DNA of 64,000 bases from the NCBI RefSeq assembly GCF_008017445.1, contig NZ_VRSW01000003.1, positions 108,279 to 172,278 on the forward strand, given 5' to 3'. Below the pieces are notes generated by a model, which saw nothing but the letters and a program-made list of their open reading frames with translations, was not told the DNA's origin and did no database searches. The stretch comes from Microbacterium mitrae. Lineage in GTDB: Bacteria > Actinomycetota > Actinomycetes > Actinomycetales > Microbacteriaceae. Shown here piece after piece: positions 42,784 through 64,000 of this stretch; position 1 is the first letter of the stretch; the number at the start of each line of letters is the position of its first letter. The position numbers and the translations under genes are program-made.

Positions 42784-42785
42784 TC

Positions 42786-43446: not shown

Positions 43447-43504
43447 CTCGCCACCTGGTTCCGCAAGCGCTTGCATAAGCGCGAGGCGACCAAGAATCCC
43501 GAAA

Positions 43505-44444: not shown

Positions 44445-44445
44445 C

Positions 44446-45126: not shown

Positions 45127-45230
45127 GCAACCCAGTTTGTCATCGGGGTGGCTGAGAAAGGCGTGATGGATCGGGGGATTGTTGCCGAGCCGTGAACTTT
45201 GGTGGGGGAGGTGCGTGGCAGACTGGTGCC

Positions 45231-45671: not shown

Positions 45672-45725
45672 CCGGGCGGGCTGTGATCAGCGCCGCGGTT
45701 GCGGGCTTTCGGGTATCTGTGGTGC

Positions 45726-46541
45726 TCAGTCGACGTCGCGGCGCCACGTGGTGAGCGCACCGATCACGGTGAGCACCGCGGCGTAAATGGCGAGCACGAT
45801 CGCGCCAACCCACCACGCCTGCGACTCAGCGGCGCCGCCGAGCATGACGTAGAAGTTTGAGCCGGTGAGGGTGTCAGACGCGGCGCTCGGCAGGTACTTG
45901 GCGATCGGCTCGATCTCGGGCGCAAAGACGGCCGCCGTGCGAATCAGCTGTTCAACCAGCTGGGTGAATACCAACGCGATGACGATAGCCGCCACCTGGT
46001 TGCGCACAATGGTTCCGAGCCCCAGGCCAATCCAAGTCCACAGCACGAAGCTGAGCACCATGCGCGCCATCATGGTGAGGTTGTCGGTTGCGGTGAGCTC
46101 TGGATCTTGACCGGTGGCGGCGAAGATTGCAGCAGCCGTGCCGACGGTGACGGCAACGGAAATGACGCCGAGAGCCGCGCCAAGAACTGCGCTGGTGATG
46201 AGCTTGGCCAGCAGCACCGTTCCGCGCCGCGGGGTGGCAAGGAACGTCGGGATGAGGGTGCCGTGACGAAACTCGCCCGTCACGAGCAGCACGCCGAGCA
46301 GAATCGGGAAGATGTAGCCGATGTTGACCGCGAGCCCGTAGACCAGCGACGGCGATGCCGCGCCCAGCAGTGCGGCATCCGGAACCTCGTCAAGGGCGCC
46401 AGACTGCGCGAGTCCGATGGCGGCCGCGAAGCCACCCGCGAGCAGCATCAGCGATACGGCGGTGATAAGGGTGAGTACCCACCAGGTGGAGGTGGTGAAG
46501 TACTTGGTGAATTCTGAACGGGTCGCAGAACCGATGCTCAT
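45726..46541 (-). CDS. ABC-2-type transporter permease
   Basis: A 271-residue permease with six membrane helices, starting SIGSATRSEFTKYFTTSTWWVLTL-like (residues 2-25), with FRHGTLIPTFLATPRRGTVLLAKL as the conserved cytoplasmic loop that touches the ATPase. Its ATG overlaps the end of the ATPase gene (ATGA), so the pair forms one transporter. The substrate is unknown; such pairs often export drugs, lipids or peptides. Confidence 0.9.
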   Translation of the reverse strand: MSIGSATRSEFTKYFTTSTWWVLTLITAVSLMLLAGGFAAAIGLAQSGALDEVPDAALLGAASPSLVYGLAVNIGYIFPILLGVLLVTGEFRHGTLIPTFLATPRRGTVLLAKLITSAVLGAALGVISVAVTVGTAAAIFAATGQDPELTATDNLTMMARMVLSFVLWTWIGLGLGTIVRNQVAAIVIALVFTQLVEQLIRTAAVFAPEIEPIAKYLPSAASDTLTGSNFYVMLGGAAESQAWWVGAIVLAIYAAVLTVIGALTTWRRDVD

Positions 46542-49306: not shown

Positions 49307-49402
49307 GCGTGGGCCTCTCTGTCCGGGGATGATCTGTCTATCCTCTCGGAAATTGACCCCATTTGTCTCTTCGGCACCAGAAATCTCTCCAACCGTGGGA
49401 GG

Positions 49403-49408
49403 TAACCT
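49403..49408 (+). promoter_or_regulatory. -10 box TAACCT of the acyl-CoA hydrolase gene
   Basis: TAACCT lies 7 nt before GTG 49416. A GGGAGG overlaps it but is too far to be a good Shine-Dalgarno. Confidence 0.45.
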
Positions 49409-49415
49409 GGGACGC

Positions 49416-50498
49416 GTGACCGAATTGAATCTCACTGACGAGCACGTTCTGGTGTCCTCCCGCGGCGGCCTCGGCCGAATCACGCTCAACCGACCGCGAG
49501 CCCTCAACGCCCTCTCGCTCGACATGATCCGCACGATTTCTGGCGTGCTTGACGATTGGCGTGAGAACACCGACGTCGAGACGATCGTCATTGACTCGAC
49601 CGATCCGCGCGGCCTGTGCGCCGGTGGCGACGTTCGCGCCCTGCGTGAAGCAATCATTGCGGGGCAGATGCATGAGGCCGCTGAATTCTTCCGCGCCGAG
49701 TACGCCATGAACGCCGCGATCGCGGAGTATCCGAAGCCGATTGTTGCTATCGCCAATGGCATCACGATGGGCGGCGGCATCGGTATTGCCGGCCACGCCT
49801 CGCACCGCATTGTGACCGAAACCTCGAAGCTGGCGATGCCGGAGACGCGCATCGGCTTCACCCCCGACGTTGGCGGCACCTGGCTCCTTGCCCACGCGCC
49901 CGGACGGTTGGGCGAGTACCTCGGCCTGACCGGAACAACGATGAACGCGTCAGACGCCATCGCGACCGGCTTTGCCGACTATTTTGTTCCGTTCGAGCGC
50001 GTTTCGTCGCTGATTGAGGCGCTTGAAACTCGCGCAGACCCCAGCACCGTCACCGAGCTCATTCTGCTGTTCGACGAGACAGCGGAACCATCGACGCTGG
50101 TCGCGGAGCGGGGCTGGATTGATGACGCGTTCGGGCGCGGCAGTGTCGCCGAGATTGCCGAGCGCCTGAACGAACTCAGCACCGACGCCGAGGTTGGCGC
50201 GCATGCGGCAGCGGCGCTGCAGTTGCTGACCGAAATGTCGCCCACGTCCCTTGCGGTCACGCTCGCGTCGGTGCGTCACGCGCGCACGCTTGACGGCGTT
50301 CGCGCCGTGCTCGCCCAGGAGTTCAACCTCGCCGATTGGTTGTGGGCAGAGTCAAACGACATGGTGGAGGGCATTCGCGCCCAGCTCGTCGATAAAGACC
50401 GCAACCCGCACTTTTTGCCAGCGACGATTGCCGAGGTTCCGGCCGACACCGGTGCCCGCGCGCTCGCTCACCGCGCCACGCCGCCGCTCTGGAACTGA
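49416..50498 (+). CDS. 3-hydroxyisobutyryl-CoA hydrolase / enoyl-CoA hydratase family
   Basis: A 360-residue crotonase-fold enzyme of the HIBYL-CoA hydrolase branch (ECH_2), which acts in valine breakdown. Family marks: ITLNRPRALNALSLDMI, GLCAGGDVRALREA with the oxyanion-hole GGD, NGITMGGGIGIAGHASHRIVTE, and the MPETRIGFTPDVGGTWLL block with catalytic Glu/Asp. The C-terminal half (LAVTLASVRHARTL; EFNLADWL) is specific to this branch. The GTG start matches the promoter. The next gene begins 5 nt after its stop. Confidence 0.9.
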   Translation: MTELNLTDEHVLVSSRGGLGRITLNRPRALNALSLDMIRTISGVLDDWRENTDVETIVIDSTDPRGLCAGGDVRALREAIIAGQMHEAAEFFRAEYAMNAAIAEYPKPIVAIANGITMGGGIGIAGHASHRIVTETSKLAMPETRIGFTPDVGGTWLLAHAPGRLGEYLGLTGTTMNASDAIATGFADYFVPFERVSSLIEALETRADPSTVTELILLFDETAEPSTLVAERGWIDDAFGRGSVAEIAERLNELSTDAEVGAHAAAALQLLTEMSPTSLAVTLASVRHARTLDGVRAVLAQEFNLADWLWAESNDMVEGIRAQLVDKDRNPHFLPATIAEVPADTGARALAHRATPPLWN

Positions 50499-50503
50499 GC
50501 TCG

Positions 50504-51433
50504 GTGTTCGATAGTCCGCTGTCGGCGTCTGCGTACGACATCTTGCAGGTTGCCGCCACCGCAACAGATGACGAGCTTCGTCGCGCCTACCGGGTGCGGC
50601 TGCGCCACACGCACCCCGATACCGGCGGTGATGCCGCGCAGTTTGTATTGGTGCAGCGGGCATGGGAATTGGTGGGAACCAGCGAGGCTCGCGCCGCCTA
50701 CGACCGCGGCCACGGGTTTGGCGCGGCGGCACCCTCGGTGCAGGACTTTTCCGGGTTTCGCGCGCCCGCGGCACGGCCGTCGACTCGTCCGGGGCCGCGC
50801 AGCTACGGTCACCCCGGTGGCCGCAACCGCGAGTTTTACCTCGCGGGCATCCGCGAGTGGGCGGGTCGCGGCGTGCAGGTTGCCGACCCCTATGACGCCG
50901 CGCTCGTGCGCTCGGCACCTCGCGAGCTCAAGCAAGCACTCGCGGACGCGCTCGCCGAAGAGACGACGGCACGCGTGCTGAGCGACCTCGGCATGGGGTA
51001 CACCCTCTGGCACGACGTCGCGGTGCCGACCCGCAGCGGCCACCCACTCATCATCGACCACATCGTGCTCGGCCCCAGTGGCCTTTACGCGCTGGCGTCG
51101 GAAGACTACGGAACCGCGGTGCGGTTTAAGCGCTCCGAAGTCATTGGCGAGGGTGTTCCGGCCGCCCCCATCGCGACGCTCGTCGGTGCCGCTCGCGCCC
51201 TCGGGCGCGCGGCAGGGGTGCGATTTGGCGGCGCTATCTTGGTGCTGCCAGACGATGACCTGCCAGAGAAGATCACCGAACTGGGCAAGGTGAAGTCGCT
51301 GCCGGTTGCAGTGGTGTCGCCGCAGACGCTCACCACCGTGCTGCGGCGCGGCGTACACGGCGTTCCCGATATCGGGGGCAACGAGATCTTCGACGTGCGC
51401 ACACGACTCAATCAGGTCGTGCGATTCGCTTAA
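50504..51433 (+). CDS. J-domain protein fused to a NERD-like domain
   Basis: A 309-residue protein. Residues 5-68 are a J domain with the HPD motif (RLRHTHPDTGGDAAQF) and AYDILQVAATATDDELRRAY. A Pro/Arg/Gly linker follows. The second half (about 145-250) looks like a nuclease-related NERD fold: LSDLGMGYTLWHDVAVP, LIIDHIVLGPSGLYALAS and VRFKRSE. A J domain would recruit DnaK; NERD domains are linked to nucleic-acid or stress functions. GTG start, 5 nt after the acyl-CoA hydrolase. Confidence 0.8.
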   Translation: MFDSPLSASAYDILQVAATATDDELRRAYRVRLRHTHPDTGGDAAQFVLVQRAWELVGTSEARAAYDRGHGFGAAAPSVQDFSGFRAPAARPSTRPGPRSYGHPGGRNREFYLAGIREWAGRGVQVADPYDAALVRSAPRELKQALADALAEETTARVLSDLGMGYTLWHDVAVPTRSGHPLIIDHIVLGPSGLYALASEDYGTAVRFKRSEVIGEGVPAAPIATLVGAARALGRAAGVRFGGAILVLPDDDLPEKITELGKVKSLPVAVVSPQTLTTVLRRGVHGVPDIGGNEIFDVRTRLNQVVRFA

Positions 51434-51513
51434 CTCGCTGCACGGGCGTGCGTTTCGGGTGAGACCGACGGTTTCCTGGTTCCGCTCGCGCGGCGCGACG
51501 CGCGGGTGCCTTG

Positions 51514-52206
51514 TTACAGCGTTGTGGTTCCGCTCGCTTCGCCCTGTCGCACCCAATAGTCGACGTCATCGACGTGCTGGGCCATGAGGGCTGCGGCGGC
51601 GGCGCCGTCAGCGGCGGCGATGGCGTCGACGATTGCCAGGTGTTCGGCGACGGTGCGCTCGACGATGCTGGTGTGCAGCGGGTCGAGGGTGACGTGCTCC
51701 AGCAACGGTTGCGCGATCAGGCTGGTGACCAACGCGGTGAGGTAGCGGTTGCCCGAGATGTCGCACAGCAGGCGGTGAAATCGGGTGCCGTGGGCGAGGT
51801 AGGCGGCGGGATCGGTGAGCTCGGCGACGGGCTTCAGCTCATCGCGCAGAGCCTGGACTTCTTCCGCAGTGGCGCTGCGGGCGGCTTCGGCGGCGGCGTG
51901 ACTTTGGAGAACGCGGCGAATGTGAAACATCTCGCCGAGCGCTCGGTCGTCGTGCATATCGGTCACGAAGGCGAGCGAGGTCAGCAGAACGTCGGGTTCG
52001 AGGCTGGTGACGTAGGTTCCGCCGCCGTGGCGCACATCAAGCACGCCAAGAAACGCGAGCGCCTTGACGGCTTCGCGTAGCGAGTTCCGCGAGATGCCGA
52101 ACTGCTCGCCCAGCTCGTGCTCGGGCGGCAACCGATCTCCCGGCCCCCATGTTCCGGAGACGATCATCGCCTTGATTTTGGCGATGGCGTCATCTGTGAG
52201 TGCCAT
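51514..52206 (-). CDS. GntR-family (FadR/FCD) transcriptional regulator
   Basis: A 230-residue repressor. The N-terminal winged helix is IVSGTWGPGDRLPPEHELGEQFGISRNSLREAVKAL (residues 15-50). The C-terminal FCD domain has metal/ligand residues in HGTRFHRLLCDISGNRY and AEHLAIVDAIAAADGAAAAALMAQHV. FadR-type regulators sense carboxylic acids or sugar acids; the target is unknown. The start has a TACCCT -10 box at 6 nt. It is divergent from the nucleosidase gene, across a gap containing a repeated GTTACCGTTCG. Confidence 0.92.
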   Translation of the reverse strand: MALTDDAIAKIKAMIVSGTWGPGDRLPPEHELGEQFGISRNSLREAVKALAFLGVLDVRHGGGTYVTSLEPDVLLTSLAFVTDMHDDRALGEMFHIRRVLQSHAAAEAARSATAEEVQALRDELKPVAELTDPAAYLAHGTRFHRLLCDISGNRYLTALVTSLIAQPLLEHVTLDPLHTSIVERTVAEHLAIVDAIAAADGAAAAALMAQHVDDVDYWVRQGEASGTTTL

Positions 52207-52212
52207 GGCACC

Positions 52213-52218
52213 AGGGTA
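52213..52218 (-). promoter_or_regulatory. -10 box TACCCT of the gntR gene (leaderless)
   Basis: TACCCT, 6 nt, ATG at 52206. Confidence 0.5.
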
Positions 52219-52264
52219 CGGGGTTCGCGCATGACCACCTATTTGGCGCGGGGGCCGCTCGGGC

Positions 52265-52300
52265 GTGGGTTACCGTTCGGGTGTGGATTACCGTTCGACG
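52265..52300. promoter_or_regulatory. 18-bp direct repeat TGG(G/A)TTACCGTTCG
   Basis: Two copies, TGGGTTACCGTTCGGG and TGGATTACCGTTCGAC, lie 18 bp apart in the gntR/nucleosidase divergent region. They may be regulator-binding sites or tandem promoters. Confidence 0.4.
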
Positions 52301-52341
52301 GGTGCCAGCGCCTAGCGTTGAGGCTGACCCCGGGAGGAACC

Positions 52342-52905
52342 ATGAAGCTGCTCGTTGCCGCCGCCGAAGCCGAACTGCAGGCATTTCCGTCGCACATTGA
52401 CGGATACGAAATCTTGGTGACCGGCATCGGCAAGCTGCGCGCCGCCGTGCGGTTGACGCAGGCGCTGGAGCGCGGCACCTATGACGAGATTCTGGTCGTC
52501 GGAACCGCGGGCTGCGTTGATGAGTCGCTGATGGCTGGCGTTCACGACATTTCGCGTGCGCTGCAGCACGATGTGCAGAATTTGGCCGGCGTTGTCGGCG
52601 AGCACGTGACGCTGCCGGCCGTAATCGAGCTTGAGCGCGACGGCGTGACCATCGCTACCGGTGACAGCTTCGTGGATGACTCGACCGTGGTGGCCACCGT
52701 GCGCGGGCTTGGCGCCTCGCTCATCGACATGGAATCGTACGCTTTCGCGTGGGTGGCGCAGGAGTATGGCGTGCCCCTGCGCATCGTGCGCGTGGTGTCT
52801 GACAAGGCAGAAGACGGCGCCACCGAACTGTGGGACGAGGTCGTCGCCCGCTGCAGCGTCGAGCTATGGGCCTGGATGCAGGCCGAGTACGGCGTCTCCG
52901 CGTAG
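52342..52905 (+). CDS. Nucleosidase (PNP/UDP-phosphorylase superfamily)
   Basis: A 187-residue protein of the MTA/SAH nucleosidase-like fold. It has EILVTGIGKLRAAVRLTQAL, the VGTAGCVDESL ribose-site strand, the TGDSFVDDS loop and the diagnostic DMESYAFAWVAQEYGVPLRIVRVVSDKA with the ribose-binding MESYA. It is shorter than typical MTANs (about 230 residues), as is common in an actinobacterial subgroup. It probably splits a nucleoside or SAM by-product. GGGAGG lies before the ATG at 52342. Confidence 0.88.
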   Translation: MKLLVAAAEAELQAFPSHIDGYEILVTGIGKLRAAVRLTQALERGTYDEILVVGTAGCVDESLMAGVHDISRALQHDVQNLAGVVGEHVTLPAVIELERDGVTIATGDSFVDDSTVVATVRGLGASLIDMESYAFAWVAQEYGVPLRIVRVVSDKAEDGATELWDEVVARCSVELWAWMQAEYGVSA

Positions 52906-53205
52906 GGGCTCTGGCGCGGCGCCGGGCTCTTTGGGTGCCGCACGGGCTCTTGGGCGTCGCACGACGCAGGCGCGGCCATATTTCCGGCGTCGCTCACCGC
53001 CGCGCATCATTTTGTCGTCGCTTTTGGTTCCGCGGGGCCCGAATCGGCCAATTTTCGACCACAAAATGAAATTCTGCCTGCAAAATGATGTGCTTCTGGC
53101 CCGCGGTGCTGCCGCGAGGCCGCAGTCGGCGGGCCAACTGGGTTGAGGCGCTGTCGGGCAGACGCGCCGTTGAACGAGCGTTCATTCTCGCGTTGAATGA
53201 GGCTC
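52906..53205. other. 300-nt gap with AT-rich inverted repeat
   Basis: No gene is seen. GCATCATTTTG (near 53005) and CAAAATGATGTGC (near 53083) form a loose inverted repeat across an AT-rich stretch that is unusual for this genome. GGGCTCTTGGG-like short repeats fill the first 60 nt. Confidence 0.4.
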
Positions 53206-54606
53206 ATGGACGACACCTTCGCAGATCTGTTTGGCGACATCTGGGGCATGGCGGGTGTTACTGGTGACGCCGGTGTGCCCGGTGACGCCGTGTCATTCAC
53301 CGGGCCGCGGGTGGTCTTGGCTTCGCCGTTCGACGTGACGGGATTGGCGACCGGCGCCGTGGCATCGGCGACGCTTGCGGTGGCGAGGTTGTTGGCGGAG
53401 CGTCGAGGTGAGCCGTTGGCGCCCGTGACCGTCGACAGCGGAATGGCGTGCGCGGCATTTCGGGGCGAGGCACTGTTCTCGCCGATCGGGTGGCAACTCG
53501 CCCCGCTGTGGGATCCGATTGCGGGCAACTATCGCGCCGCCGACGGCTGGATCAGACTGCACACCAACTACGCGCATCATCGAGCCGCCGTGCGCGACGT
53601 GCTCCGCGCCGAAGATCGAGATGGCGTGGCTACGGCAGTCGCAGCCTGGCGTACGGTCGATCTTGAAACAGCCATAGTTGCCGCCGGTGGGGCGGCCGCG
53701 GCCATGCACGCGCGCGACGAATGGTTAGCCTCGCCCGCGGGGCGCGCGACTGCCGGCGTTCCGCTTCTCGAATTTGACCAGGGTTCGTCGGGGTCTGCCC
53801 CCGCGTGGGCTGGCACCACCCCGACGTTGCCGTTGAGCGGGGTGCGCGTGCTCGATCTGACGCGCGTTATTGCCGGGCCAACCTGCACGAAGGTTCTCGC
53901 CTGGTACGGCGCTGACGTATTGCGCATCGACCCGCCAGGCTTTGAGGAGGTGGCATCTTTGCTTCCCGAGACGACCGTGGGCAAACGGTGTGCTGCGCTG
54001 GATCTGAACTCCATTGAGGGCCGCGCCCACTTCGAGGCCCTGTTGGCAGAGGCTGACGTTATCGTGCTCGGCCTGCGAGGGGACGCGCTCGCATCGCTCG
54101 GCTACACGGACGAGCGTTTGGCAGTGATCAATCCCGCCCTGATCGTCGCGCGACTGAATGCCTACGGGTGGGAAGGGCCATGGAAAAACCGACGCGGCTT
54201 CGACAGCCTCGTGCAGATGAGTTGCGGCATAGCAGCCGATGGTGCGGCCACGTTCGGGCGTGACGAGCCGACCCCGCTACCCGTGCAGGCACTCGACTAC
54301 GCGACCGGATGGTTCCTGGCGGCCGCCGTCGCTCGGGCGCTCACAACGCAGCTGACGAACGGGGCTACCACGCGCATTTCTGGGTCACTCGTCGCTACCG
54401 CGAACCTGCTTTACAGCCTGCCGCGCCCACCGCGCGCACTGACCGCCGCCGCCTCTGACGCCGTCGATTTGGAGGAGACAGCGACCGCCTGGGGGCAGGC
54501 GAAACGCGTGCCCATGCCAGGGCGCATCGCAGGCGTGGTTCCGCAGTGGCAGCACAACGCCGGTCCGCTCGCACGCCGCGACGCAGTCTGGAACAGCCGA
54601 GAGTAG
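53206..54606 (+). CDS. CaiB/BaiF family III CoA-transferase
   Basis: A 466-residue protein related to formyl-CoA and carnitine CoA-transferases. The signature lies in the second half: LSGVRVLDLTRVIAGPTCTKVLAWYGADVLRIDPPGFEE, then TVGKRCAALDLNSIEGR, YGWEGPWKNRRGFDSLVQMSCGIA and PLPVQALDYATGWFLAAAVARAL. The N-terminal half looks like a duplicated or degenerate CaiB domain with HTNYAHHRAAVRDVL. CoA donor and acceptor are unknown. TGAGG precedes the ATG at 53206. A strong terminator follows. Confidence 0.88.
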   Translation: MDDTFADLFGDIWGMAGVTGDAGVPGDAVSFTGPRVVLASPFDVTGLATGAVASATLAVARLLAERRGEPLAPVTVDSGMACAAFRGEALFSPIGWQLAPLWDPIAGNYRAADGWIRLHTNYAHHRAAVRDVLRAEDRDGVATAVAAWRTVDLETAIVAAGGAAAAMHARDEWLASPAGRATAGVPLLEFDQGSSGSAPAWAGTTPTLPLSGVRVLDLTRVIAGPTCTKVLAWYGADVLRIDPPGFEEVASLLPETTVGKRCAALDLNSIEGRAHFEALLAEADVIVLGLRGDALASLGYTDERLAVINPALIVARLNAYGWEGPWKNRRGFDSLVQMSCGIAADGAATFGRDEPTPLPVQALDYATGWFLAAAVARALTTQLTNGATTRISGSLVATANLLYSLPRPPRALTAAASDAVDLEETATAWGQAKRVPMPGRIAGVVPQWQHNAGPLARRDAVWNSRE

Positions 54607-54620
54607 CCGTCTGAAGACAG

Positions 54621-54662
54621 CACAACGCCCCGTCGGCTGAGCCAGACGGGGCGTTGTGTTTG
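54621..54662. terminator. Terminator between the CaiB gene and cspA
   Basis: A perfect 14-bp stem CACAACGCCCCGTC / GACGGGGCGTTGTG with a 10-nt loop, followed by TTTGTT on the plus strand. It can serve both convergent genes. Confidence 0.88.
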
Positions 54663-54669
54663 TTACGGA

Positions 54670-54873
54670 TTACAGCGCGACGATGTTCGCAGCCTGCATG
54701 CCCTTGGGGCCCTGCTCAGCGTCGAATTCGACCTTCTGTCCTTCGCGCAGCTCCTTGAAGCCTGAACCGACGATTGCGCTATAGTGCGCAAAGAGGTCTG
54801 CGGATCCGTCATCGGGAGCGATGAAGCCGTAGCCCTTTTCGCCGTTGAACCATTTCACGGTGCCAGTGGCCAT
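54670..54873 (-). CDS. cspA: Cold-shock protein (CspA family)
   Basis: A 67-residue single cold-shock domain that binds single-stranded RNA and DNA and melts mRNA structure. RNP1 is KGYGFI and RNP2 is DLFAHYSAI (LFAHY instead of the usual VFVHF). Full length and start [17 protein letters not shown] are typical. AAAGGAAAG precedes the ATG, and a short hairpin lies in the leader. Confidence 0.97.
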
Positions 54874-54894
54874 CGTGTCTTTCCTTTGTTATGC

Positions 54895-54912
54895 CGACCG
54901 CTTGTGCGGTCG
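54895..54912 (-). promoter_or_regulatory. CGACCGC-TTGT-GCGGTCG hairpin in the cspA leader
   Basis: A perfect 7-bp stem with a 4-nt loop, 22 nt before the cspA ATG. It could act in cold-responsive mRNA structure or end the upstream small gene. Confidence 0.45.
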
Positions 54913-54915
54913 CTA

Positions 54916-55182
54916 TCATCTTCTCACCATTTTGCGGGCTTTTGCACGCAAAATTGGTCGAGTTTTTGCACGAGCGTGCTGCACGGCGTCTTGCGCGAGT
55001 GCACGTGTGCGGTACTTTCCGAGGCGTTCGCCTCGGGCACCGTGGGCAAAATAGCCCGCGGCGGGTGCGACGGCAATGAAGCCGGCGTATTCGCCTTCGT
55101 GGGTTGCCACGAAGACGTCGTCGTCGGCTTGGAGCCAACGCAAATCGAAGGGCACGGCCTCAACGCCGCTGAGAACAGACAA
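54916..55182 (-). CDS. Small protein upstream of cspA (88 aa)
   Basis: Probable coding region. It reads LRWLQADDDVFVATHEGEYAGFIAVA, then GYFAHGARGERLGKYRTRALAQDAVQHA and a basic C-terminus (RPILRAKARKMVRR). The pattern of strands and a helix resembles small actinobacterial proteins of unknown function. An in-frame stop lies two codons before a TTG at 55182, so that TTG (or a later GTG) must be the start; no good Shine-Dalgarno is seen. It precedes cspA by 42 nt on the same strand. Confidence 0.5.
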   Translation of the reverse strand: MSVLSGVEAVPFDLRWLQADDDVFVATHEGEYAGFIAVAPAAGYFAHGARGERLGKYRTRALAQDAVQHARAKTRPILRAKARKMVRR

Positions 55183-55412
55183 AATTTACAACTTTCTGAC
55201 GCACGCAAACGCGCACGTAAATCAATGGTTCCGGAACCGGAACGTGAGTTGACGCGGAGCCGTCATTGGCATCTGCATCGGGAGTTGGTGGGCGGGTGCG
55301 AACCCGCGAACTCTCTACTTTAGCAGACGGCGCGGGTGGCGCCTGGGAACGGGGTGTGACCGTGTGGCTGTTCGCGGGCGCGTGGTGTGACGGGGTCGGA
55401 ACCGCCGGGTTG

Positions 55413-55470
55413 CGTTGCGTGCGTCCGTGCGTGCGTGCGTGCGTGCGTGCGTGCGGGCGTGCGGGCGGTT
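55413..55470. repeat. (GTGC)n microsatellite
   Basis: About nine GTGC/GTCC/GGGC tetranucleotide units run up to the second 90-bp palindromic element. The stretch 55183-55682 contains only this tract, the element and GGGTTGCGGG short repeats. Confidence 0.8.
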
Positions 55471-55482
55471 GCGGGTTGGGGC

Positions 55483-55572
55483 GGAGCAGGGGATGGCTGC
55501 GACGATATCTCCGGGCCACCCTGCGGGTGGCCTGCCAGACCCGCCAATATCGTCTCCGCCATCCCCTGCTCC
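55483..55572. repeat. 90-bp nested palindromic element, copy 2
   Basis: Same sequence as 18688-18777 apart from a few substitutions, with the outer arms here pairing better (GGAGCAGGGGATGGC... / ...GCCATCCCCTGCTCC) and the inner GGCCACCC-TGC-GGGTGGCC hairpin unchanged. Both copies are followed by TT(C/T)GGAGGCAGG and preceded by GTGC-rich tracts. Confidence 0.8.
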
Positions 55573-55682
55573 TTTGGAGGCAGGGACCGGGTTGCGCGGT
55601 TGGCTGGGTTGGGTTGCCGGGTTGCGGGGGTCGCTGGTTGAGCGTGGCCGGGTTGGGCTGGCCGGGTTGCGGGGGTGCTGGG

Positions 55683-56153
55683 TTAGTTGTCGTGTTCGGT
55701 TTGGATGTGGGCGATTTCTGCGTTGCTGTTGTGGCCGACGTAGATCTTGAGGCGGGCGTCGTCATTGAGCACGGCGTGGAGTGCCTCGCGGGTACTGTCG
55801 GCTTCGCGGCTGAATGCGGTGGCGATGAGATCGGCGTAAGGCGCGGTCTGCGAGTCGGCCTGCCAGACAGACGCGGGGGCAAGGGCGGTCGCAACGGCGT
55901 CGATGGAGTCAGCGGTGAGGTCGGTGCCCGAGGCCGCTGCGATCTGTTCGGCGTCGAGCTGGAAGATCGTCTTGTAGCTGTCGGAGTAAGCGATCGTGAC
56001 GAACGTCTCCGCCGGAGCGGGCGTTGGCTGCGTCGTCTCGGAGGCGGAACCACTGGGCGCGGTTGTCTCGCTGCCGGGCTGTTGCGCTGGTGCGCAGGCG
56101 GTGAGACCGAGCATGACGGTGAGGGCGATGGCGAGAACAGATGTGCGGCGCAT
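55683..56153 (-). CDS. Putative lipoprotein (156 aa)
   Basis: A secreted lipoprotein of unknown function. A signal peptide with lipobox LTAC (Cys near 20) is followed by a Ser/Thr/Pro/Glu-rich linker (about 22-50) and a small alpha/beta domain (VTIAYSDSYKTIFQLDAEQI; REALHAVLNDDARLKIYVGHNSN). The earlier Met in the frame is not needed, since the signal peptide starts at 56153 (MRRTSVLAIALTV). Confidence 0.8.
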   Translation of the reverse strand: MRRTSVLAIALTVMLGLTACAPAQQPGSETTAPSGSASETTQPTPAPAETFVTIAYSDSYKTIFQLDAEQIAAASGTDLTADSIDAVATALAPASVWQADSQTAPYADLIATAFSREADSTREALHAVLNDDARLKIYVGHNSNAEIAHIQTEHDN

Positions 56154-56273
56154 AACGGCTTTCTGGCGGCGGCGCGGCCGGTGACGGACAGAACTTTTCA
56201 CCTTAGCCGCGCGCTCTGAGCAACCCCTGGGCGGTACGGCCACGGCTTGCGGTAGGGGAGCTGCCGCACCGGG

Positions 56274-56705
56274 TTACGGCATGACGCGGGCGACAGCTTC
56301 GGCGAACCAGCGTGCGTACGCATGCCATGGTTCCGTCGTTCCGCGAATTGCCGACGTGTGCGCAACGAGTTCGGGGGCGGCGTCGAACCATTCGCCACCG
56401 AGTCGTAGGTGGGCGAACTGCTCGTGGCGGGAGTGTTCTGTGTGGCGATCGCCCGGCTCGAAGGCGAGCAGTTCGTCGTGTTTGATCGCGGCGAGGCGCT
56501 GGCGGGGGCTTGCCGTGGTTCCGATTTTGATGCGCTGGTCAAAGCGCAAGTAGTAGACGATGTCGATGCGGGGGAGGGGGATGCCGGCATCGATTGTATC
56601 GCCGACGCGCCAGCCGCAGACGCCGCAGCGTATGCCGCCGCTGTCGCGCACGCCGGTCGTCGCCCGGCACAAAAGGCACGGTCGTTCAAGCTCGACGGTG
56701 GGCAC
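56274..56705 (-). CDS. T5orf172 / GIY-YIG-like domain protein with zinc ribbon
   Basis: A 143-residue protein. The N-terminus has two CxxC pairs (CLLC and CGVC) forming a probable zinc ribbon, followed by a T5orf172-type GIY-YIG domain: IVYYLRFDQRIKIGTTASPRQRLAAI, then GDRHTEHSRHEQFAHLRLGGEWF. The family is linked to DNA binding or nicking in phages and mobile elements. The GTG start is 5 nt from a TAACGT box. It lies 1.3 kb upstream of the Wadjet operon on the opposite strand; a functional link is not shown. Confidence 0.82.
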   Translation of the reverse strand: MPTVELERPCLLCRATTGVRDSGGIRCGVCGWRVGDTIDAGIPLPRIDIVYYLRFDQRIKIGTTASPRQRLAAIKHDELLAFEPGDRHTEHSRHEQFAHLRLGGEWFDAAPELVAHTSAIRGTTEPWHAYARWFAEAVARVMP

Positions 56706-56798
56706 GATTTACGTTATCGCGGGGCGCCGACATCGCCGGATTCACCGGTGTTACTGCGGAGTAGTGCGTGTAGGGCGCGCGTTTGAGAGGATTCAGGA

Positions 56799-57893
56799 AT
56801 GAATGCACCCCTGGGTTCGTCGCAGACGCGAGAAGTTCGGTCCACGCGATTCGCGATCATCGCGTTTGTACTGGGCGCCCTGTTGGGTATTTTGGTCGCT
56901 GGTGGCAGGCATTTGCCGGTTGGCGGGCCCGAGTCGTGGGGCAACATTGCCGCATGGGTGACGGGCGCTCTCACCGGTTTGGGCTTCGCGTTGGCGTATC
57001 TGCTGCCGGGTGGCGGGCGTAGCGAGCCGCGCCTGCGGTGGCGACACGAGGTTCCGCTCGTCAAGCGCATCATCGACCTCGTTGCGCTCACCGGTGCCAC
57101 CGCGATGCTGAACTACCTGATCGTGATGGCCGTCGCAGCGGTGTTTGAGATGGGCTTTCGCGGGCTCATGATCGACCCGCTTGGCGGCGGCGTGCTGGTC
57201 GGTTTTGCCGCGGCCGCGATGACGTACGGCGCGGCGCTCGCGGGGTCTCGGGTGTCGGGAACGTCGGTTGCGACGCTCGCGATTTCGGTGCTGTTCATCG
57301 GAACCGTGGCGAGCATGGTGAGTTCGCCAGACGCGTCGTGGTGGCAACTACACTTCTCGGAGCTGGGCAATACCGCGGGCGTGACCGGCTATCGTTTCAA
57401 CCTCGCGCTCATCACGACCGGCCTCGTGATTACGGTGCTGGCGGGCTATGTGCGGCAAGATTTCGCGAGCGGTCTGCGCCGCCGAGGCTTTGACGTCGGG
57501 CGCCGGCCGAAGCTGCTCGGCGTGCTGTTTGGCGGCATCGGTGTCTGCATGATGGTCGTCGGTCTCGTGCCCGACGCGGAGAACTTCGCCGTGCACGTCA
57601 GCGCGGGGTCGGGCATGGTGGTGCTGTTTGGCGCCTTCGCGTTTGTTTCGCTGCGCTACATTCCTGACCTCCCTCGCGACCTGATCGCGTTTACGACGGT
57701 TGTCGTCGTCGGCATCATTGTCGCGGTGCTGCTGTGGGTTCCGATCGGCTACTACAACCTCACCGGCATGGAACTCGTCGCCGCCGGCCTACTCTTCGCG
57801 TGGCTCATGGTGTTCGTACGCGCCGTCGAGGCGTATGGGGCGGTTGATGATGATGATGCGGGTTCTGCGGTGGCGGAACATCGAGATGGGTAG
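56799..57893 (+). CDS. Multi-pass membrane protein, DUF998-like
   Basis: A 364-residue integral membrane protein with about ten hydrophobic segments (for example FAIIAFVLGALLGILVAGG; MLNYLIVMAVAAVFEMGF; VVVVGIIVAVLLWVPIGYY) and an acidic C-terminal tail (VDDDDAGSAVAEHRDG). The central GNTAGVTGYRFNLALITTGLVI fits DUF998-type proteins. Function is unknown. AGGA lies before the ATG. It is the last gene before the Wadjet operon and is separated from it by 137 nt. Confidence 0.78.
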   Translation: MNAPLGSSQTREVRSTRFAIIAFVLGALLGILVAGGRHLPVGGPESWGNIAAWVTGALTGLGFALAYLLPGGGRSEPRLRWRHEVPLVKRIIDLVALTGATAMLNYLIVMAVAAVFEMGFRGLMIDPLGGGVLVGFAAAAMTYGAALAGSRVSGTSVATLAISVLFIGTVASMVSSPDASWWQLHFSELGNTAGVTGYRFNLALITTGLVITVLAGYVRQDFASGLRRRGFDVGRRPKLLGVLFGGIGVCMMVVGLVPDAENFAVHVSAGSGMVVLFGAFAFVSLRYIPDLPRDLIAFTTVVVVGIIVAVLLWVPIGYYNLTGMELVAAGLLFAWLMVFVRAVEAYGAVDDDDAGSAVAEHRDG

Positions 57894-58030: not shown

Positions 58031-59509
58031 ATGAGTGAGATTGGTGGTGAGTTGGCACGCACGATTGAAACGTTCGACCAGCCGACGCTGACATTGATCC
58101 ATCAGACGCATGCGCCTGTAGTGGTCGCGGTTCTCAACTCGTGCTTCTCTCGCGAGATCCGACTTGTTGGCACGGCGCGGCTTCACACGATGGTCGAGCA
58201 GATGCTTGCCGAGATCTCCACCAGCGGGCGAGACGTCACGATCCCGACAGGTACGGGTCGCGAGGTCTGCATGAAGTGGATGAAGGCGCAGTGGCTCATT
58301 CGCTCGGCGACTGAGGACGGCTCCGAGGTCTACTCATTGACCTCTCACGCACAACAGGCGATTGACTTCATGGCGAACCTGCGACAGGAGCGCACAGGCT
58401 TAAGTGAGCACCGCGTCGCGAACATAATTGCAACCGCTCGGCGCATCAACCGCGAAAGTAACCCTGATCGCAATGCTCGTGTCGCGATCCTCGAGGCTGA
58501 ATACGTCGAGATCGGTGTGGAACTTGACCGGCTCCGAGCAGGTGGAGAGATAAAGCGCATGTCGGATGACCGACTACTGGAAGGATTCGCGGAACTGCTC
58601 TCGCTCGTCGCGCAACTGCCATCAGACTTCAAACGTGTCGAAGAATCGTTCCGCGCTGTGCGCAGCGAAATCCTCGAAGACTTTCGTGCCGAGCGACGGG
58701 CGCCGGGTGACGTGATCGATCGCTACCTTGACCGCATAGATAACCTCGTCACAGCGACCGCGGAGGGTCGAGCATTTGAGGGCGCATTTGCGCTCCTACG
58801 TGATGACGCACTGCTGCAGCAGTTGCGTGCTGACGTTAACGTGCTCATCGAGCAGGGGGAGTTGTTTCTGGTCGACCGTGACCGCACAGACCTCCGAGGT
58901 ATCGTCCCGTTGATGCGTGCGGGCTTGGACTCAGCGATGGATCAGCGAAGTCGCATCACAGAGGTCCTCCGTACCTACATCACCTCGCGCGATCCTGGCC
59001 AGGATCAAGAGTTCGATGCTTTGCTTCGAGAGCTCGAAGGTGCCGTCGCGAAGTGGCTCGGCGTGGCAGGTGCACGAGCTACGGTCCCGATGGAACTACT
59101 GCCGGGGAAGCCTGAGATCGAGACACTCAAGGAGCGGTACTACGACCCCTCTGATGATCGACCGTTGCCGGAATTTGAGGTGGTGGACGGCGAGAGCCCG
59201 GAAGCAATGTCACTGAATGAGCTACGTCGGTTTGGCGGGCCGCATCTCGAGCAACTCGGCGAGGCCCTCTTCTCCGCCGAGGGGCGTATTGACGAATGGA
59301 CGCTCAGCGGAGTCTTTTCCACGCTGCCGGCGGATGCGCGCCGGCCGGTCGACATGCTCGGCCTATTTCACCTGGCAACCAACAGCGACGGGCTGATCAA
59401 GATCGACGACGAGGAGTTGTACTCCACGGTCAGGCCGGATGGCACTCGCGCAACGTTCATGGCACCGCTGTATGTGCCAGGAGAACAGCAAGCAGAGGAC
59501 GAACCGTGA
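58031..59509 (+). CDS. jetA: Wadjet defence protein JetA (DUF3375)
   Basis: A 492-residue protein matching the JetA/DUF3375 (MukF/kleisin-like) subunit of type I Wadjet, which detects circular plasmids and triggers their cleavage. The opening LTLIHQTHAPVVVAVLNSCFSREIR with winged-helix features, the helical middle (about 100-320) and the acidic C-terminus ending GEQQAEDEP are typical. It should bind the JetC ATPase heads. GAGGG precedes the ATG. The stop overlaps jetB's GTG. The GC level is lower than in the rest of the window. Confidence 0.9.
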   Translation: MSEIGGELARTIETFDQPTLTLIHQTHAPVVVAVLNSCFSREIRLVGTARLHTMVEQMLAEISTSGRDVTIPTGTGREVCMKWMKAQWLIRSATEDGSEVYSLTSHAQQAIDFMANLRQERTGLSEHRVANIIATARRINRESNPDRNARVAILEAEYVEIGVELDRLRAGGEIKRMSDDRLLEGFAELLSLVAQLPSDFKRVEESFRAVRSEILEDFRAERRAPGDVIDRYLDRIDNLVTATAEGRAFEGAFALLRDDALLQQLRADVNVLIEQGELFLVDRDRTDLRGIVPLMRAGLDSAMDQRSRITEVLRTYITSRDPGQDQEFDALLRELEGAVAKWLGVAGARATVPMELLPGKPEIETLKERYYDPSDDRPLPEFEVVDGESPEAMSLNELRRFGGPHLEQLGEALFSAEGRIDEWTLSGVFSTLPADARRPVDMLGLFHLATNSDGLIKIDDEELYSTVRPDGTRATFMAPLYVPGEQQAEDEP

Positions 59510-60228
59510 CGATCATCGGCGAGCACGAAGACGAGTTGTTTGAGGACGAAACACTCGAAGAGAGTCTTGAGGACGAAACACTCGAAGAGAGCATAGACAC
59601 TGTGCCCATCGACGACGACGCGGTGACCTATTTCGAAGGCGACGACGGAGGACTGGATCTCGCTGAGAGGCGCGCTCTTGTCGTGTTGTTGAAACATCGA
59701 TTCGTCACCGTGGAGACGTCAAACGGTGTATGGGACACGATCGTGAAGTCGCGCAAGATCATAAACTCGCGACTCAACGATCTCTTCCTTGAGCTGGTGA
59801 TCGACGTCGACCGTGAAGTCGCGTTCAAGCGCCAGGTGTCGCCGCGTGCGATGGGTCTCGACTTTCCCACGCTGTTGTTCGCACACGCTTGGCAACGCGA
59901 AGAGACCGCATTGCTGGTGTTCCTCCGCCTGAAGTTCCGAGAAGCCGAAGGCCGAGGCGAGAAATACGGACGTGTGAGCCGGGAAGCGATGTACGACTTC
60001 CTCAAGGACAACCGAGCCGCCACTGCGACAGATGAAGTGCGCGACGGCTCACGAGCCAAGCGTGCCGTTGACGCGCTGAAGACCGCCCAGTTGCTGAAGG
60101 AAGTGGACACGGACGAGTTTCGTATCTCACCGGCGATCGCCGTGCTTCTTCCGGCATCAACGCTGATGAATTTGCTGTCCTGGCTAACTGACCAGGTCAT
60201 CGGGGCGACCGAGGAGGACACATTATGA
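59506..60228 (+). CDS. jetB: Wadjet defence protein JetB (DUF4194)
   Basis: A 240-residue MukE-like subunit (DUF4194) that joins JetA and JetC. The conserved block starts LDLAERRALVVLLKHRFVT and includes WDTIVKSRKIINSRLNDLFLELVIDVDREVAFKRQV and LKTAQLLKEVDTDEFRISPAI. The N-terminal 40 residues are acidic and contain a 9-residue tandem repeat (EDETLEESL twice), from a 27-nt duplication at 59542. The GTG start overlaps the jetA stop. Confidence 0.9.
   Translation: MTIIGEHEDELFEDETLEESLEDETLEESIDTVPIDDDAVTYFEGDDGGLDLAERRALVVLLKHRFVTVETSNGVWDTIVKSRKIINSRLNDLFLELVIDVDREVAFKRQVSPRAMGLDFPTLLFAHAWQREETALLVFLRLKFREAEGRGEKYGRVSREAMYDFLKDNRAATATDEVRDGSRAKRAVDALKTAQLLKEVDTDEFRISPAIAVLLPASTLMNLLSWLTDQVIGATEEDTL
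59542..59591 (+). repeat. 27-nt tandem repeat inside jetB
   Basis: GAGGACGAAACACTCGAAGA and the next 3 nt occur at 59542 and again at 59569 without change, encoding EDETLEES twice. The perfect identity suggests a recent slippage event. Confidence 0.85.
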
Positions 60229-63200
60229 CTCTTTTGCAAGGGGATGAAGGGTTCGTCGACGCGGCTGAGAGTCAATGGCGTGCCGAAAAGCTCCAGGTGT
60301 TCAACTGGGGCGGCTTCCATGGTCACGCCGTGCTCGATCTCGCAGAAGAAGTCACCGTCGTGAGCGGCATGTCCGGTGCGGGAAAGAGCACGCTGCTCGA
60401 TGCCTACACTGCACTAATGATGCCGCCTACCGTGGCGTTCAACGGTGCGTCCAATGACTCCGGAGCTGGGCGTGCTCGCTCCGCCGAACAGCGCAACGTG
60501 TTGAGCTATCTGCGAGGGAAGATCGACGACACGCTCGAAGAAGGCGAGGTCATTGACGACGTGCTCCGCGGCCGTGACGCGCCTGTTTGGGGCGCTGTGG
60601 CGATGACCTTCATCAAAGAAGCGGGCCAGCGTTTCACTGCTGTGCGGGCCTATTATGCCGCCGCCCGACTGGTGAAGTCGTCCGAGGTGACCACACGAAA
60701 CATGACAATCCACGCCACATTCGACGTACGGGAATTGCAGGAGTTTGCACGCATCGGGGAGTCCAACTTCCCGGCACGAAACCTGAAGGCGAAGTGGCCG
60801 GGGCTCAGCACCCACGAAACGAACGATTCGTTCTCGCAGACGTTGTTCACAAAGCTCGGTATTGGACTGAACGGTGACGGCGCGAAAGCATTGCGATTGC
60901 TCGCACGAATCCAGGCGAGCGCCGACATCCCGACGGTAGACAAGCTCTATAAGGAACTCGTAATTGAAGAGCCTGACACGTACGTCAAGGCAGACAAGGC
61001 GATCAACCACTTCGACCAACTCGATGACGTATACCAGGAGATGATCACGGCTCAACAGCGAGCCGATCTGCTGGAGCCGATCACGGAGGCACACGCGGCG
61101 CTCGTCGAGGCTCAAGAGGCGATCGTCAACGGCGACGAGCTGGGTGACGTGCGTAGCGATCACACTTCTGCGGGCCTCTGGCGGCTCCGCAAGCACAGCA
61201 CACTCTTGCGTGAAGCGGTGGCTACGAACCGTACGGAAGCACAGCAGGAGCGCACGAACGTCGCGGAGCTGACCCTCTTCGAGCAATCGACGAGGTCGTT
61301 GCTCGAAGCGACGAAAAAGGAACACCGGGAAGCCGGCGGCGACCTTCTATCAGAGCTGGCCCTCCAAATCGATCAGATAAGCGCAACCATCGCTCGGCGA
61401 GAAGACGTGCGTCGACGATTCATCACCGCAACTCAAAGTCTGGGGCTCCCACTGGCGACGCGCGACGAGTTCGACGCGGCGAGAGACGCGGCGGCGGAGT
61501 TCGGGGCCGAGTACGTCAGTGCGAGCACCGAGTTAGGCGGGCGCCGCGATGCGATGCTTCGAGACTCCTATCCGATGCACGAGCGAGCGAAAGAGATTCG
61601 TCAGGAACTTACCTCGCTCAAGACACGTACCGGTCGAATCGACGAGCACTTCCACGAGATGCGTCTCGCGGCAGCACAGGCATCGGGGCTTCCGATTTCC
61701 GATCTGCCGTTCGTCGCGGAGCTGATCGATGTGCTCCCCGAGGAGGCCGATTGGCGGGTCGCGATCGAGACGGCACTCCACTCGAGCGCACGCACGATGC
61801 TGGTGCCGATGGAGTATCTGGCTGAGTTCTCCCGCGCGATCGATCCGATCGAGCTGCGGGGGCGCCTTACGTTCCAAGGTGTACGTCGTAATGTGCCAGC
61901 ACGTTCCGCGGCTCGGGACCCTCGGCGCGTGGCAGGCAAACTGCAGTTCAAGGAGTCACCGTATAGAGGCTGGGTGCTGGATCACGTCGCAGACGGATCA
62001 CGCAACGCCTTGTGTGTGGATTCCCCGGACGACCTTGGTGGCGACGATCTTCGCATCACGTCGGCCGGTCAGACGAGGCGCGGAGCGCGTGGCGCGCACG
62101 GTCGTCAGTCACAACGTAACGTCATCGGCTTCGACAACGTTGATCTTCGCGGGGAACTGGCAGCGGAGCTCGCTTCGACTGAGGTGGCTTTGGTGCGACT
62201 GAATGAAAGCAGCGCCGGAATCGCACGCGAACTCCAGGAACTGGAAGCGAAGCGGTCGGCATTTCAGCGCGTACTGGAGACGAACTGGTCGGAGATTGAC
62301 CTAGCGGGCGTCACCGCGGAGCAGGCTGAGCTGGAGAAGCGTCGCAACGACATCCGTGACAACAATGACGTCTTGGCGGCACTTGATCAGCAGATCATTG
62401 ATCTGGAAACGAATCTGGACGAGACACAACGTCAGCGGCATGCAAGCGCTGAATCGGTGACGCGACTGGACTTGAGACATGCGGAACTCGTCGACATCGA
62501 AGACCGGATAAACCCGGCTCTCACCTTTGCTGATTCTGATGACACGATCGTGTTGCGCGACGACTTGGTGGCAGGCCTTGACCGTATCTGGGACTCGCTC
62601 GTCGTTGGCGATCCTGTGACACCTGCCACGTTTGATCGCTATGCGTTGCGTATCGCGGATGTACTTAAAGAGCGAGTGGCTCAGGCGCAAACCGAGGTAG
62701 CTCGGATGACTCAGCACATCGAAGGCATTTTCCGCCGGTATCTGGCGCAATGGCCGGAGCCGAACCTGATGGCGACCGTCGACTTCTACGATGACTTTGC
62801 GGCGATTCTCGCATCGATCGTGGAGTCAGGTTTGCGTGAGCGTCGCGACGAGTGGCGCCGTCGTTTGTTGCAATGGAGCGGTGAGCACCTGCAGCAGCTG
62901 GCGACTTCGTTGACGACTGCGGTGGAGGACATCGAGAACCGCCTCTATCCGATTAACCAGATTCTTCGCGATTTGCCGTTCGGCGCGACAGATGACCGGC
63001 TGCAGATCGATCTTCGCAAGCTTTCGTCAGAGGCCGTGACAAGGTTCCGCAAGGAACTGACAGCGCATGCACGAATTGCGACGACCGGGCTGGACGAAGA
63101 AGCATTGGAGAAGCGGTTCAAAGACCTGCAACGATTCATGGCGCAGATCAGGCGGAAGGATGACTTACGTCTTCCCCGCAACCTCATGGATCGTGCAGAC

Positions 63201-63623
63201 CGTGATCGACTGCTTGATGTACGTCGTCATGTTGAAATCACTGCGCAACGTGTGGATGGGGACGGTGAGGTGCTGAGCGTGTACAGCACGTTGCGTGGCA
63301 AGAGCGGCGGCGAGATGCAGGAGCTGATCGCTTTCATCGTCGGAAGCGCTCTGCGGTTTCAGCTCGGCGACCAGGAGCGTTCGCGACCAACGTTCGCACC
63401 CGTGTTCCTCGACGAGGGTTTCATCAAGGCTGATGGCCAGTTCACGGGTCGAGCGGTTCAGGCGTGGCGCAAGCTCGGCTTCCAGTTGATTGTGGGTGCC
63501 CCGATCGACAAAGCTCCGGCGCTGGAGGCTCACGCCGAGTTGGTGGTGATGGTTACGAAAAACCTGACCACGCACCGCTCCTACATCGCCGATATTCGCC
63601 GACATGACGACGTGACACCATGA
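60225..63623 (+). CDS. jetC: Wadjet defence protein JetC (SMC/MukB-like ATPase)
   Basis: A 1132-residue SMC-type ATPase, the motor of Wadjet, which extrudes DNA loops to measure circle size. Walker A is GMSGAGKST (about 48-56). Long charged coiled-coil stretches flank a central hinge-like region (about 480-640; ISDLPFVAELIDVLPEEADW). The ABC signature lies in GKSGGEMQELIAF near 1025, and Walker B in FAPVFLDEGF near 1060. The ATG overlaps jetB and the stop overlaps jetD. It holds only one GGTTCC, at 63043, unlike the host genes. Confidence 0.93.
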   Translation: MTLLQGDEGFVDAAESQWRAEKLQVFNWGGFHGHAVLDLAEEVTVVSGMSGAGKSTLLDAYTALMMPPTVAFNGASNDSGAGRARSAEQRNVLSYLRGKIDDTLEEGEVIDDVLRGRDAPVWGAVAMTFIKEAGQRFTAVRAYYAAARLVKSSEVTTRNMTIHATFDVRELQEFARIGESNFPARNLKAKWPGLSTHETNDSFSQTLFTKLGIGLNGDGAKALRLLARIQASADIPTVDKLYKELVIEEPDTYVKADKAINHFDQLDDVYQEMITAQQRADLLEPITEAHAALVEAQEAIVNGDELGDVRSDHTSAGLWRLRKHSTLLREAVATNRTEAQQERTNVAELTLFEQSTRSLLEATKKEHREAGGDLLSELALQIDQISATIARREDVRRRFITATQSLGLPLATRDEFDAARDAAAEFGAEYVSASTELGGRRDAMLRDSYPMHERAKEIRQELTSLKTRTGRIDEHFHEMRLAAAQASGLPISDLPFVAELIDVLPEEADWRVAIETALHSSARTMLVPMEYLAEFSRAIDPIELRGRLTFQGVRRNVPARSAARDPRRVAGKLQFKESPYRGWVLDHVADGSRNALCVDSPDDLGGDDLRITSAGQTRRGARGAHGRQSQRNVIGFDNVDLRGELAAELASTEVALVRLNESSAGIARELQELEAKRSAFQRVLETNWSEIDLAGVTAEQAELEKRRNDIRDNNDVLAALDQQIIDLETNLDETQRQRHASAESVTRLDLRHAELVDIEDRINPALTFADSDDTIVLRDDLVAGLDRIWDSLVVGDPVTPATFDRYALRIADVLKERVAQAQTEVARMTQHIEGIFRRYLAQWPEPNLMATVDFYDDFAAILASIVESGLRERRDEWRRRLLQWSGEHLQQLATSLTTAVEDIENRLYPINQILRDLPFGATDDRLQIDLRKLSSEAVTRFRKELTAHARIATTGLDEEALEKRFKDLQRFMAQIRRKDDLRLPRNLMDRADRDRLLDVRRHVEITAQRVDGDGEVLSVYSTLRGKSGGEMQELIAFIVGSALRFQLGDQERSRPTFAPVFLDEGFIKADGQFTGRAVQAWRKLGFQLIVGAPIDKAPALEAHAELVVMVTKNLTTHRSYIADIRRHDDVTP

Positions 63624-64000
63624 AGTCGTCAGCCGAGTTCGAGCGCGATGTGACACGACGTCTCGAACGATCGTGGGCGGAGGAGCTCGTGGGGCCGACG
63701 GGGGATTGGCCGCGGAAGTTCCCACTCGGGTTGGAGTCGGCGGACGTGCTCGGCGCGGACTTCGGGAGCTTCGTCGGCCAGATTGATGCGTGGCGACGCT
63801 ATGCCCGTGAGCGAGGGTTGACGCTTCATGAGACCGGCAGGCGGGTGGGCGCGGTGACGCATCGTATTCCGTCGCACGTAACGGTGGAGGACCCGGGTGA
63901 GGCGGCGGCACTTGTCGGCTCTGGCTGGCCGGAGCGGTTGGCGCGAGGCGCCGTGCGTGTTCGGGAGGTGGGGGCGAGGTTCCCCGCGTTTAACGGGGTC
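63620..64000 (+). CDS. jetD: Wadjet nuclease subunit JetD, N-terminal part
   Basis: The first 127 residues are seen; the gene runs off the window. It starts MKSSAEFERDVTRRLERSWA and continues with WPRKFPLGLESADVLGADFG, IDAWRRYARERGLTLHETG and RIPSHVTVEDPGEAAALVGSGWP, the DUF3322 N-terminal domain of JetD. The catalytic Toprim/topoisomerase-VI-like part that cuts the plasmid (DUF2220) would lie beyond the edge. The ATG overlaps the jetC stop (ATGA). Confidence 0.88.
   Translation, partial: MKSSAEFERDVTRRLERSWAEELVGPTGDWPRKFPLGLESADVLGADFGSFVGQIDAWRRYARERGLTLHETGRRVGAVTHRIPSHVTVEDPGEAAALVGSGWPERLARGAVRVREVGARFPAFNGV

What the first reader, a model, noticed from the sequence alone, without database searches (positions are those of the whole stretch)
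58031..64000. Type I Wadjet (jetABCD) anti-plasmid operon
Four genes with 4-nt overlaps match JetA (DUF3375), JetB (DUF4194), JetC (SMC ATPase with Walker A, signature and Walker B) and the start of JetD. Wadjet is established as a plasmid-sensing SMC defence system; its presence here is read from motifs. The operon is complete except for the window edge, and no other classical defence gene adjoins it inside the window.
Basis: partly seen in the sequence, partly recalled or inferred. Interest (0 to 1): 0.75.

Follow-up and report, generated by a model that had tools for sequence, protein, structure and literature searches.

The report
Complete type I Wadjet anti-plasmid operon
This is a complete, apparently intact copy of a known bacterial system that detects and cuts small circular DNA such as plasmids; the kind is common in this group of bacteria, although many of its near relatives lack the DNA-cutting part.

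Summary
JetA, JetB, JetC and JetD lie head to tail with 4-nt overlaps. Past the window edge JetD is complete (393 aa, window frame 63620-64801) with DUF3322 and JetD_C domains. PADLOC names for all four are the '1' (type I) models, and JetC matches solved Wadjet JetC far better than MukB. Five acidic JetD positions are kept in 20 of 20 actinobacterial JetDs. Mechanism, inferred from studied systems: JetABC extrudes loops on small circles and activates the JetD nuclease. A new member of a known kind.

(1) JetD is often absent in relatives: in 33 of 46 JetA-positive genomes of a 99-genome genus sample no JetD was detected, and 64 of 75 assessable named JetC loci lack it nearby. The JetC tree needs at least 8 switches and JetC and JetD trees do not conflict, which favours repeated JetD loss. 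(2) Just past the window lies a tRNA-Phe site with tandem att-like repeats and an Nsn-labelled gene pair; in relatives it carries other defence-type genes.

The parts
58031..59509 (+). jetA, kleisin-like subunit (DUF3375), 492 aa
   Evidence: JetA1 8.3e-149; DUF3375 1.8e-97; PDB JetA 8dk1 6.2e-15
59506..60228 (+). jetB, KITE/MukE-like subunit (DUF4194), GTG start, 240 aa, acidic N-terminus with a duplicated 9-aa segment
   Evidence: JetB1 2.1e-60; DUF4194 9.4e-33; repeat; no PDB sequence match at E 0.001
60225..63623 (+). jetC, SMC ATPase, 1132 aa
   Evidence: JetC1 E=0, 1224.5 bits; PDB JetC 8as8 1.5e-56
60366..60392 (+). JetC Walker A (GMSGAGKST, residues 48-56)
   Evidence: read; G48, S50, G51 and G53-T56 invariant in 7 of 7 aligned JetC
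63300..63320 (+). JetC ABC signature (KSGGEMQ, residues 1026-1032)
   Evidence: read; K1026-E1030 and Q1032 invariant in 7 of 7
63399..63416 (+). JetC Walker B (PVFLDE, residues 1059-1064)
   Evidence: read; V1060 and L1062-E1064 invariant in 7 of 7; Pfam SbcC_Walker_B 995-1082
63620..64000 (+). jetD nuclease, first 127 aa; the gene continues past the edge to 64801 (393 aa in all, L002:7899-9080)
   Evidence: JetD1 1.5e-90; DUF3322, JetD_C; PDB MksG 1.9e-19, JetD 9.5e-8 and 2.4e-6

Best explanation
A complete chromosomal type I Wadjet system. JetA (kleisin), JetB (KITE) and JetC (SMC ATPase) form the loop-extruding core; on small circular DNA extrusion runs to completion and switches on the JetD Toprim nuclease, which cuts the circle. 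Shown here: the four families, their order, intact frames and kept catalytic positions. Inferred from studied type I systems: complex assembly, extrusion, shape and size sensing, cleavage, and lower plasmid uptake or copy number. The operon was probably acquired horizontally.
For: Family assignment of all four genes and PDB relatives of JetA, JetC and JetD. JetD E240, D284, D286, E363, E365 are kept in 20 of 20 JetDs; four of them align with MksG E236, D279, E349, E351. JetC ATPase motifs kept in 7 of 7. The closest named homologue, Mycetocola miduiensis (JetC 59% identical), also has jetABCD, and the own-Mycetocola distances of JetC (0.75) and JetD (0.88) are alike, so JetD is not obviously decaying. 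Horizontal gain: GC3 0.65-0.74 in the jet genes against 0.73-0.81 in 17 of 21 predicted ORFs at 38996-57893, and no JetA closer than 43% identity in the 98 other genus genomes searched. Mechanism: PMC10586767 (passages; section 7) and PMC10123090 (passages).
Against: No activity data. The IFDR motif that PMC10586767 reports at the JetB N-terminus as a JetD contact is not present as letters in this JetB. JetB has no PDB match by phmmer. Many near JetABC relatives do without JetD, so the core may have another role. Four of 21 upstream ORFs have GC3 of 0.62-0.71 too, so the composition argument is modest.
Confidence: 0.92

Rival explanations
1. A MksBEF-type chromosome condensin in which JetD is incidental or inactive.
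For: Many close JetABC relatives show no JetD (33 of 46 JetA-positive genus genomes; 64 of 75 assessable named loci). PMC10586767 cites P. aeruginosa MksBEF as a precedent (passage).
Against: JetD is full length, overlaps jetC by 4 nt, and keeps all five checked acidic positions; own-L057 JetC and JetD distances are alike. In C. glutamicum the JetD-bearing complex did not contribute to chromosome folding (PMC7083940, abstract and passages).
Confidence: 0.06
2. A type II or III Wadjet, or a MukBEF system, misread as type I.
For: Remote MukB matches.
Against: The Wadjet models hit by the four proteins are all named JetA1, JetB1, JetC1 or JetD1 (reading the 1 as type I is recalled); the fourth gene is DUF3322 + JetD_C; MukB matches are far weaker.
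Confidence: 0.02

Closest known systems
MksBEFG of Corynebacterium glutamicum (called a type I Wadjet in PMC10123090)
   Same: MksG (8b7f) is the best PDB match of this JetD (1.9e-19); its metal-binding E and D and both C-terminal E are kept.
   Different: MksG Y258, proposed there as the active tyrosine, aligns with Arg (R262) here and is Tyr in only 4 of 20 actinobacterial JetDs. MksB, MksE and MksF were not compared.
Type I JetABCD of E. coli GF4-3 and P. aeruginosa PA14 (PDB 8as8, 8q72, 8dk1-3, 7til; strain names from PMC10586767 and PMC10123090)
   Same: JetA and JetC match (best 6.2e-15 and 1.5e-56), JetD matches mainly in the Toprim part.
   Different: Distant; JetB has no PDB match by phmmer; no literal IFDR motif in this JetB.
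jetABCD of Mycetocola miduiensis (L057)
   Same: Same gene order, JetC 59% identical over residues 1-1129.
   Different: Nucleotide matches of 66-73% (and one 52-nt piece of 85%) lie inside the operon only; the 2.3 kb before and 0.9 kb after it that were compared do not match.
JetD-less JetABC (MksBEF-like) of the same genus and of Nocardioides, Cryobacterium, Curtobacterium
   Same: JetA, JetB and JetC in the same order.
   Different: No JetD nearby and no substitute gene shared beyond single genera next to JetC.

Membership tests
Wadjet type I | JetA with DUF3375 | tested here: met
Wadjet type I | JetB with DUF4194 | tested here: met
Wadjet type I | JetC SMC ATPase with Walker A, signature, Walker B | tested here: met
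Wadjet type I | JetD with DUF3322 and Toprim-type C-terminal domain, complete | tested here: met
   by sequence profile, no structure was predicted
Wadjet type I | Order jetA-jetB-jetC-jetD on one strand | tested here: met
Wadjet type I | Toprim acidic residues kept | tested here: met
   20 of 20 JetDs at five positions
Wadjet type I | JetB N-terminal IFDR motif (reported for a studied system; not a definition of the family) | tested here: not met
   Not present as letters; reported in PMC10586767 section 7
Wadjet type I | Cleaves or restricts small circular plasmids | not testable with these tools
   needs an experiment
MukBEF / MksBEF condensin | No nuclease subunit JetD/MksG | tested here: not met
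   JetD present

The most novel reading that the evidence does not exclude
In Actinobacteria the type I JetABC core has repeatedly parted from its nuclease: JetD was lost many times while JetABC stayed intact, so plasmid defence and a JetD-free, condensin-like role are neighbouring states of one machine. The window's operon would be one of those that kept the weapon.
Probability: 0.55. Interest if true: 0.5.

Novelty: new member of a known kind. Interest (0 to 1): 0.3.

Why it matters
The operon itself is ordinary: 42% of actinobacterial genomes were reported to carry a Wadjet (PMC10482375, passages). Its use is comparative. Sister loci with and without JetD (two Kineosporia, several Nocardioides, and genomes of the window's own genus) would let one test what JetABC does once the nuclease is gone. 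[quoted passage not shown] The variable residue at MksG's Y258 position argues against a general tyrosine mechanism in JetD.

Tried and rejected
A single-sequence scan of genome contigs with JetC found no relative; the alignment query did. A typed tRNA-like pattern found nothing; the repeat finder and ARAGORN had already located the tRNA-Phe repeats. Homologues of the upstream neighbour (21 of 38 genomes, best other 33% identical) and of the gene beyond the tRNAs (37 of 38) were sought to find an empty site; the upstream gene gave no shared position, so the left boundary stays unknown. A replacement fourth gene in JetD-less loci was sought and not found: apart from the JetD family itself, downstream gene families were shared by at most 7 loci (the largest in Curtobacterium). 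That JetABCD is itself cargo of the tRNA-Phe site is left open: it lies outside the leftmost repeat, separated by about 0.8 kb that by eye is a frameshifted transposase remnant, and genes left of it match the left flanks of only 2 of 10 relatives, at unrelated places. L036 was left out of the trees because its JetC is split in two frames. A sigma-70-type scan upstream of jetA gave one weak site (9 of 12), not used. Plasmid records hold distant JetC relatives (15 records, best 37% identity); not followed. No structure prediction was run.

Full report
Observation. The window is C4:108279-172278 of an unnamed 2.82-Mb, 10-contig genome. The stretch C4:164000-183000 (L002) carries the sequence past the edge. 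The genes are jetA 58031-59509, jetB 59506-60228 (GTG start, my choice), jetC 60225-63623 and jetD 63620-64801 in window frame; each junction is a 4-nt overlap. Pfam, PADLOC and PDB matches are given in the observation check and parts; NCBIfam had no match at its cut-offs. In the own genome one place matched JetC, one JetA and one JetD.

Activity marks. JetC keeps Walker A (48-56), signature (1026-1032) and Walker B (1059-1064), with the key residues invariant in 7 of 7 aligned JetC. In JetD, E240, D284, D286, E363 and E365 are kept in all 20 JetDs aligned: own, 8 from the genus and 11 from named genomes. In the alignment E240, D284, E363 and E365 stand opposite MksG E236, D279, E349 and E351 (roles from PMC10123090, passages); one numbering offset of the PDB chain fits all of them and Y258. 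That paper proposes Y258 as the active tyrosine, reports drastically reduced cleavage in Y258A with residual activity, and says the residue seems conserved in actinobacterial homologues. The aligned position is Arg here and Tyr in 4 of 20, all four in L043-L046 from the two divergent genus clades. Two rows (L107, L117) have an extra residue at that place, so their letter is unsure.

Mechanism. From PMC10586767 (passages; [quoted passage not shown] I apply this by homology; nothing here tests it.

Origin. The jet genes have third-position GC of 0.65-0.74 (the jetB value is for the over-long ORF); of 21 predicted ORFs at 38996-57893, 17 have 0.73-0.81 and 4 have 0.62-0.71. Overall GC is 0.57-0.64 over the operon against 0.65-0.66 just left of it. 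In 99 genomes of the genus (own included) the best other JetA is 43% identical, four more are 36-39%, most others 29-34% and some 24-28%. The nearest named relative is Mycetocola miduiensis; own and L057 are sisters for both JetC and JetD. This fits horizontal gain, but I did not find the boundaries.

JetD is often missing in relatives. In the 99-genome sample JetA was found in 46. JetD, searched with a 9-row profile, was found in 15 genomes, two of them (G052, G074) with fragments only and no JetA. So 13 of the 46 JetA-positive genomes have a JetD somewhere and in 33 none was detected; in that search usually only 19 candidate places per genome were scored, so misses are possible. Of 20 genus loci that I chose and read (L027-L046, best and weaker matches), 8 have JetD after JetC and 12 do not. 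Of 80 named JetC loci kept by the tool out of 543 relatives (itself a capped list), 11 have JetD, 64 have none within the DNA held, and 5 (L069, L088, L111, L123, L136) have under 1 kb downstream and were set aside. Of the 11, L066 is split in two frames and L119 has about 1.4 kb between JetC and JetD. The query alignment held 5 JetD-less rows of 7, which may bias the 80 loci towards JetD-less ones. JetD was sought genome-wide only in the genus genomes, not in the named ones.

History. On a quick tree of 95 JetC rows (19 with JetD; L036 and the 5 short loci left out) presence of JetD needs at least 8 changes. The count gives no direction, 22 of 92 inner branches are weak and the tool warned of long branches. 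Some contrasts are close: two Kineosporia (L071 with, L080 without, end branches 0.039 and 0.034). Trees of JetC and JetD for the 18 rows with intact JetC and JetD (L036, L066 left out) show no conflict among well-supported groups, though the JetD backbone is largely unresolved. This is expected if JetD was inherited with JetC and lost repeatedly. The JetD distance exceeds the JetC distance most in Nocardioides (L081-L095: 0.89 against 0.13) and Glaciihabitans (1.10 against 0.38), and least in own-L057 (0.88 against 0.75) and L058-L071 (0.59 against 0.68) (the two trees used different models, so ratios are rough). I read the Nocardioides excess as relaxed constraint on JetD; diversifying selection would look alike. 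No substitute fourth gene recurs in JetD-less loci beyond close relatives. In print I saw one statement of this kind, that P. [quoted passage not shown] My searches listed no title on JetD loss in Actinobacteria, but they cover open-licence papers only and I read passages and one section, not whole papers.

Neighbourhood. Beyond the window, a tRNA-Phe gene (L002 16959-17032, minus strand) and two partial copies of its 3' part with adjoining sequence (9916-10034, 96%; 12645-12755, 93%) bound two tandem units of about 2.7 and 4.2 kb. The second holds genes with PADLOC labels NsnC (1e-42) and NsnB (2.4e-55). Among 8 ORFs of these units scanned with Pfam there was no integrase; three smaller or overlapping ORFs were not scanned with Pfam. 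Partial copies of the same tRNA-Phe end lie on the contig of the full copy in at least 10 other genus genomes (listing truncated). I read 6 of these 10 and scanned 20 of their ORFs: AbiU-like plus tyrosine recombinase (L047); an ApeA-type N-terminal domain, a DNA methylase, a DndB/DpdB-like gene and an IS481-type transposase (L048); GmrSD/HEC-06 (L049); NsnB-like (L050); C5 methylase, AAA ATPase and tyrosine recombinase (L051, Pfam only); NsnA/PD-T4-2-like plus Fic (L052). In four other genomes read (L053-L056) only the full copy was seen. The Wadjet sits about 0.8 kb outside the outermost repeat, so it is a neighbour of this site, not shown to be its cargo.

Verdict. What deserves follow-up is the recurrent separation of JetABC from JetD.

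Noticed in passing
L002:9900-17076 (window frame about 65621-72797): tRNA-Phe site with three att-like copies and two tandem units; the same site carries different defence-type genes in the 6 relatives read (one by Pfam only), some units with a tyrosine recombinase, others without one in the ORFs scanned.
   Followed up: partly
L002:12895-15592 (-): Gene pair with PADLOC labels NsnC (1e-42) and NsnB (2.4e-55; Pfam AAA_21/AAA_15) inside the second tRNA-Phe unit.
   Followed up: partly
L002:10690-11106 (-): Helix-turn-helix protein in the first tRNA-Phe unit, with unassigned ORFs beside it.
   Followed up: no
L002:9081-9915: Frameshifted remains that by eye look like an IS3-type transposase, between JetD and the first att-like repeat.
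   Followed up: partly
window 59540-59591: Two exact 25-nt copies, 27 nt apart start to start, duplicate a 9-aa acidic segment in the JetB N-terminus.
   Followed up: no
L036, L066: Broken Wadjet loci: JetC in two frames (L036) and JetD in two frames (L066); sequencing error not excluded.
   Followed up: no
JetD R262 (own JetD, L002:7899-9080): The position aligned with C. glutamicum MksG Y258 is variable: Tyr in 4 of 20 actinobacterial JetDs.
   Followed up: yes
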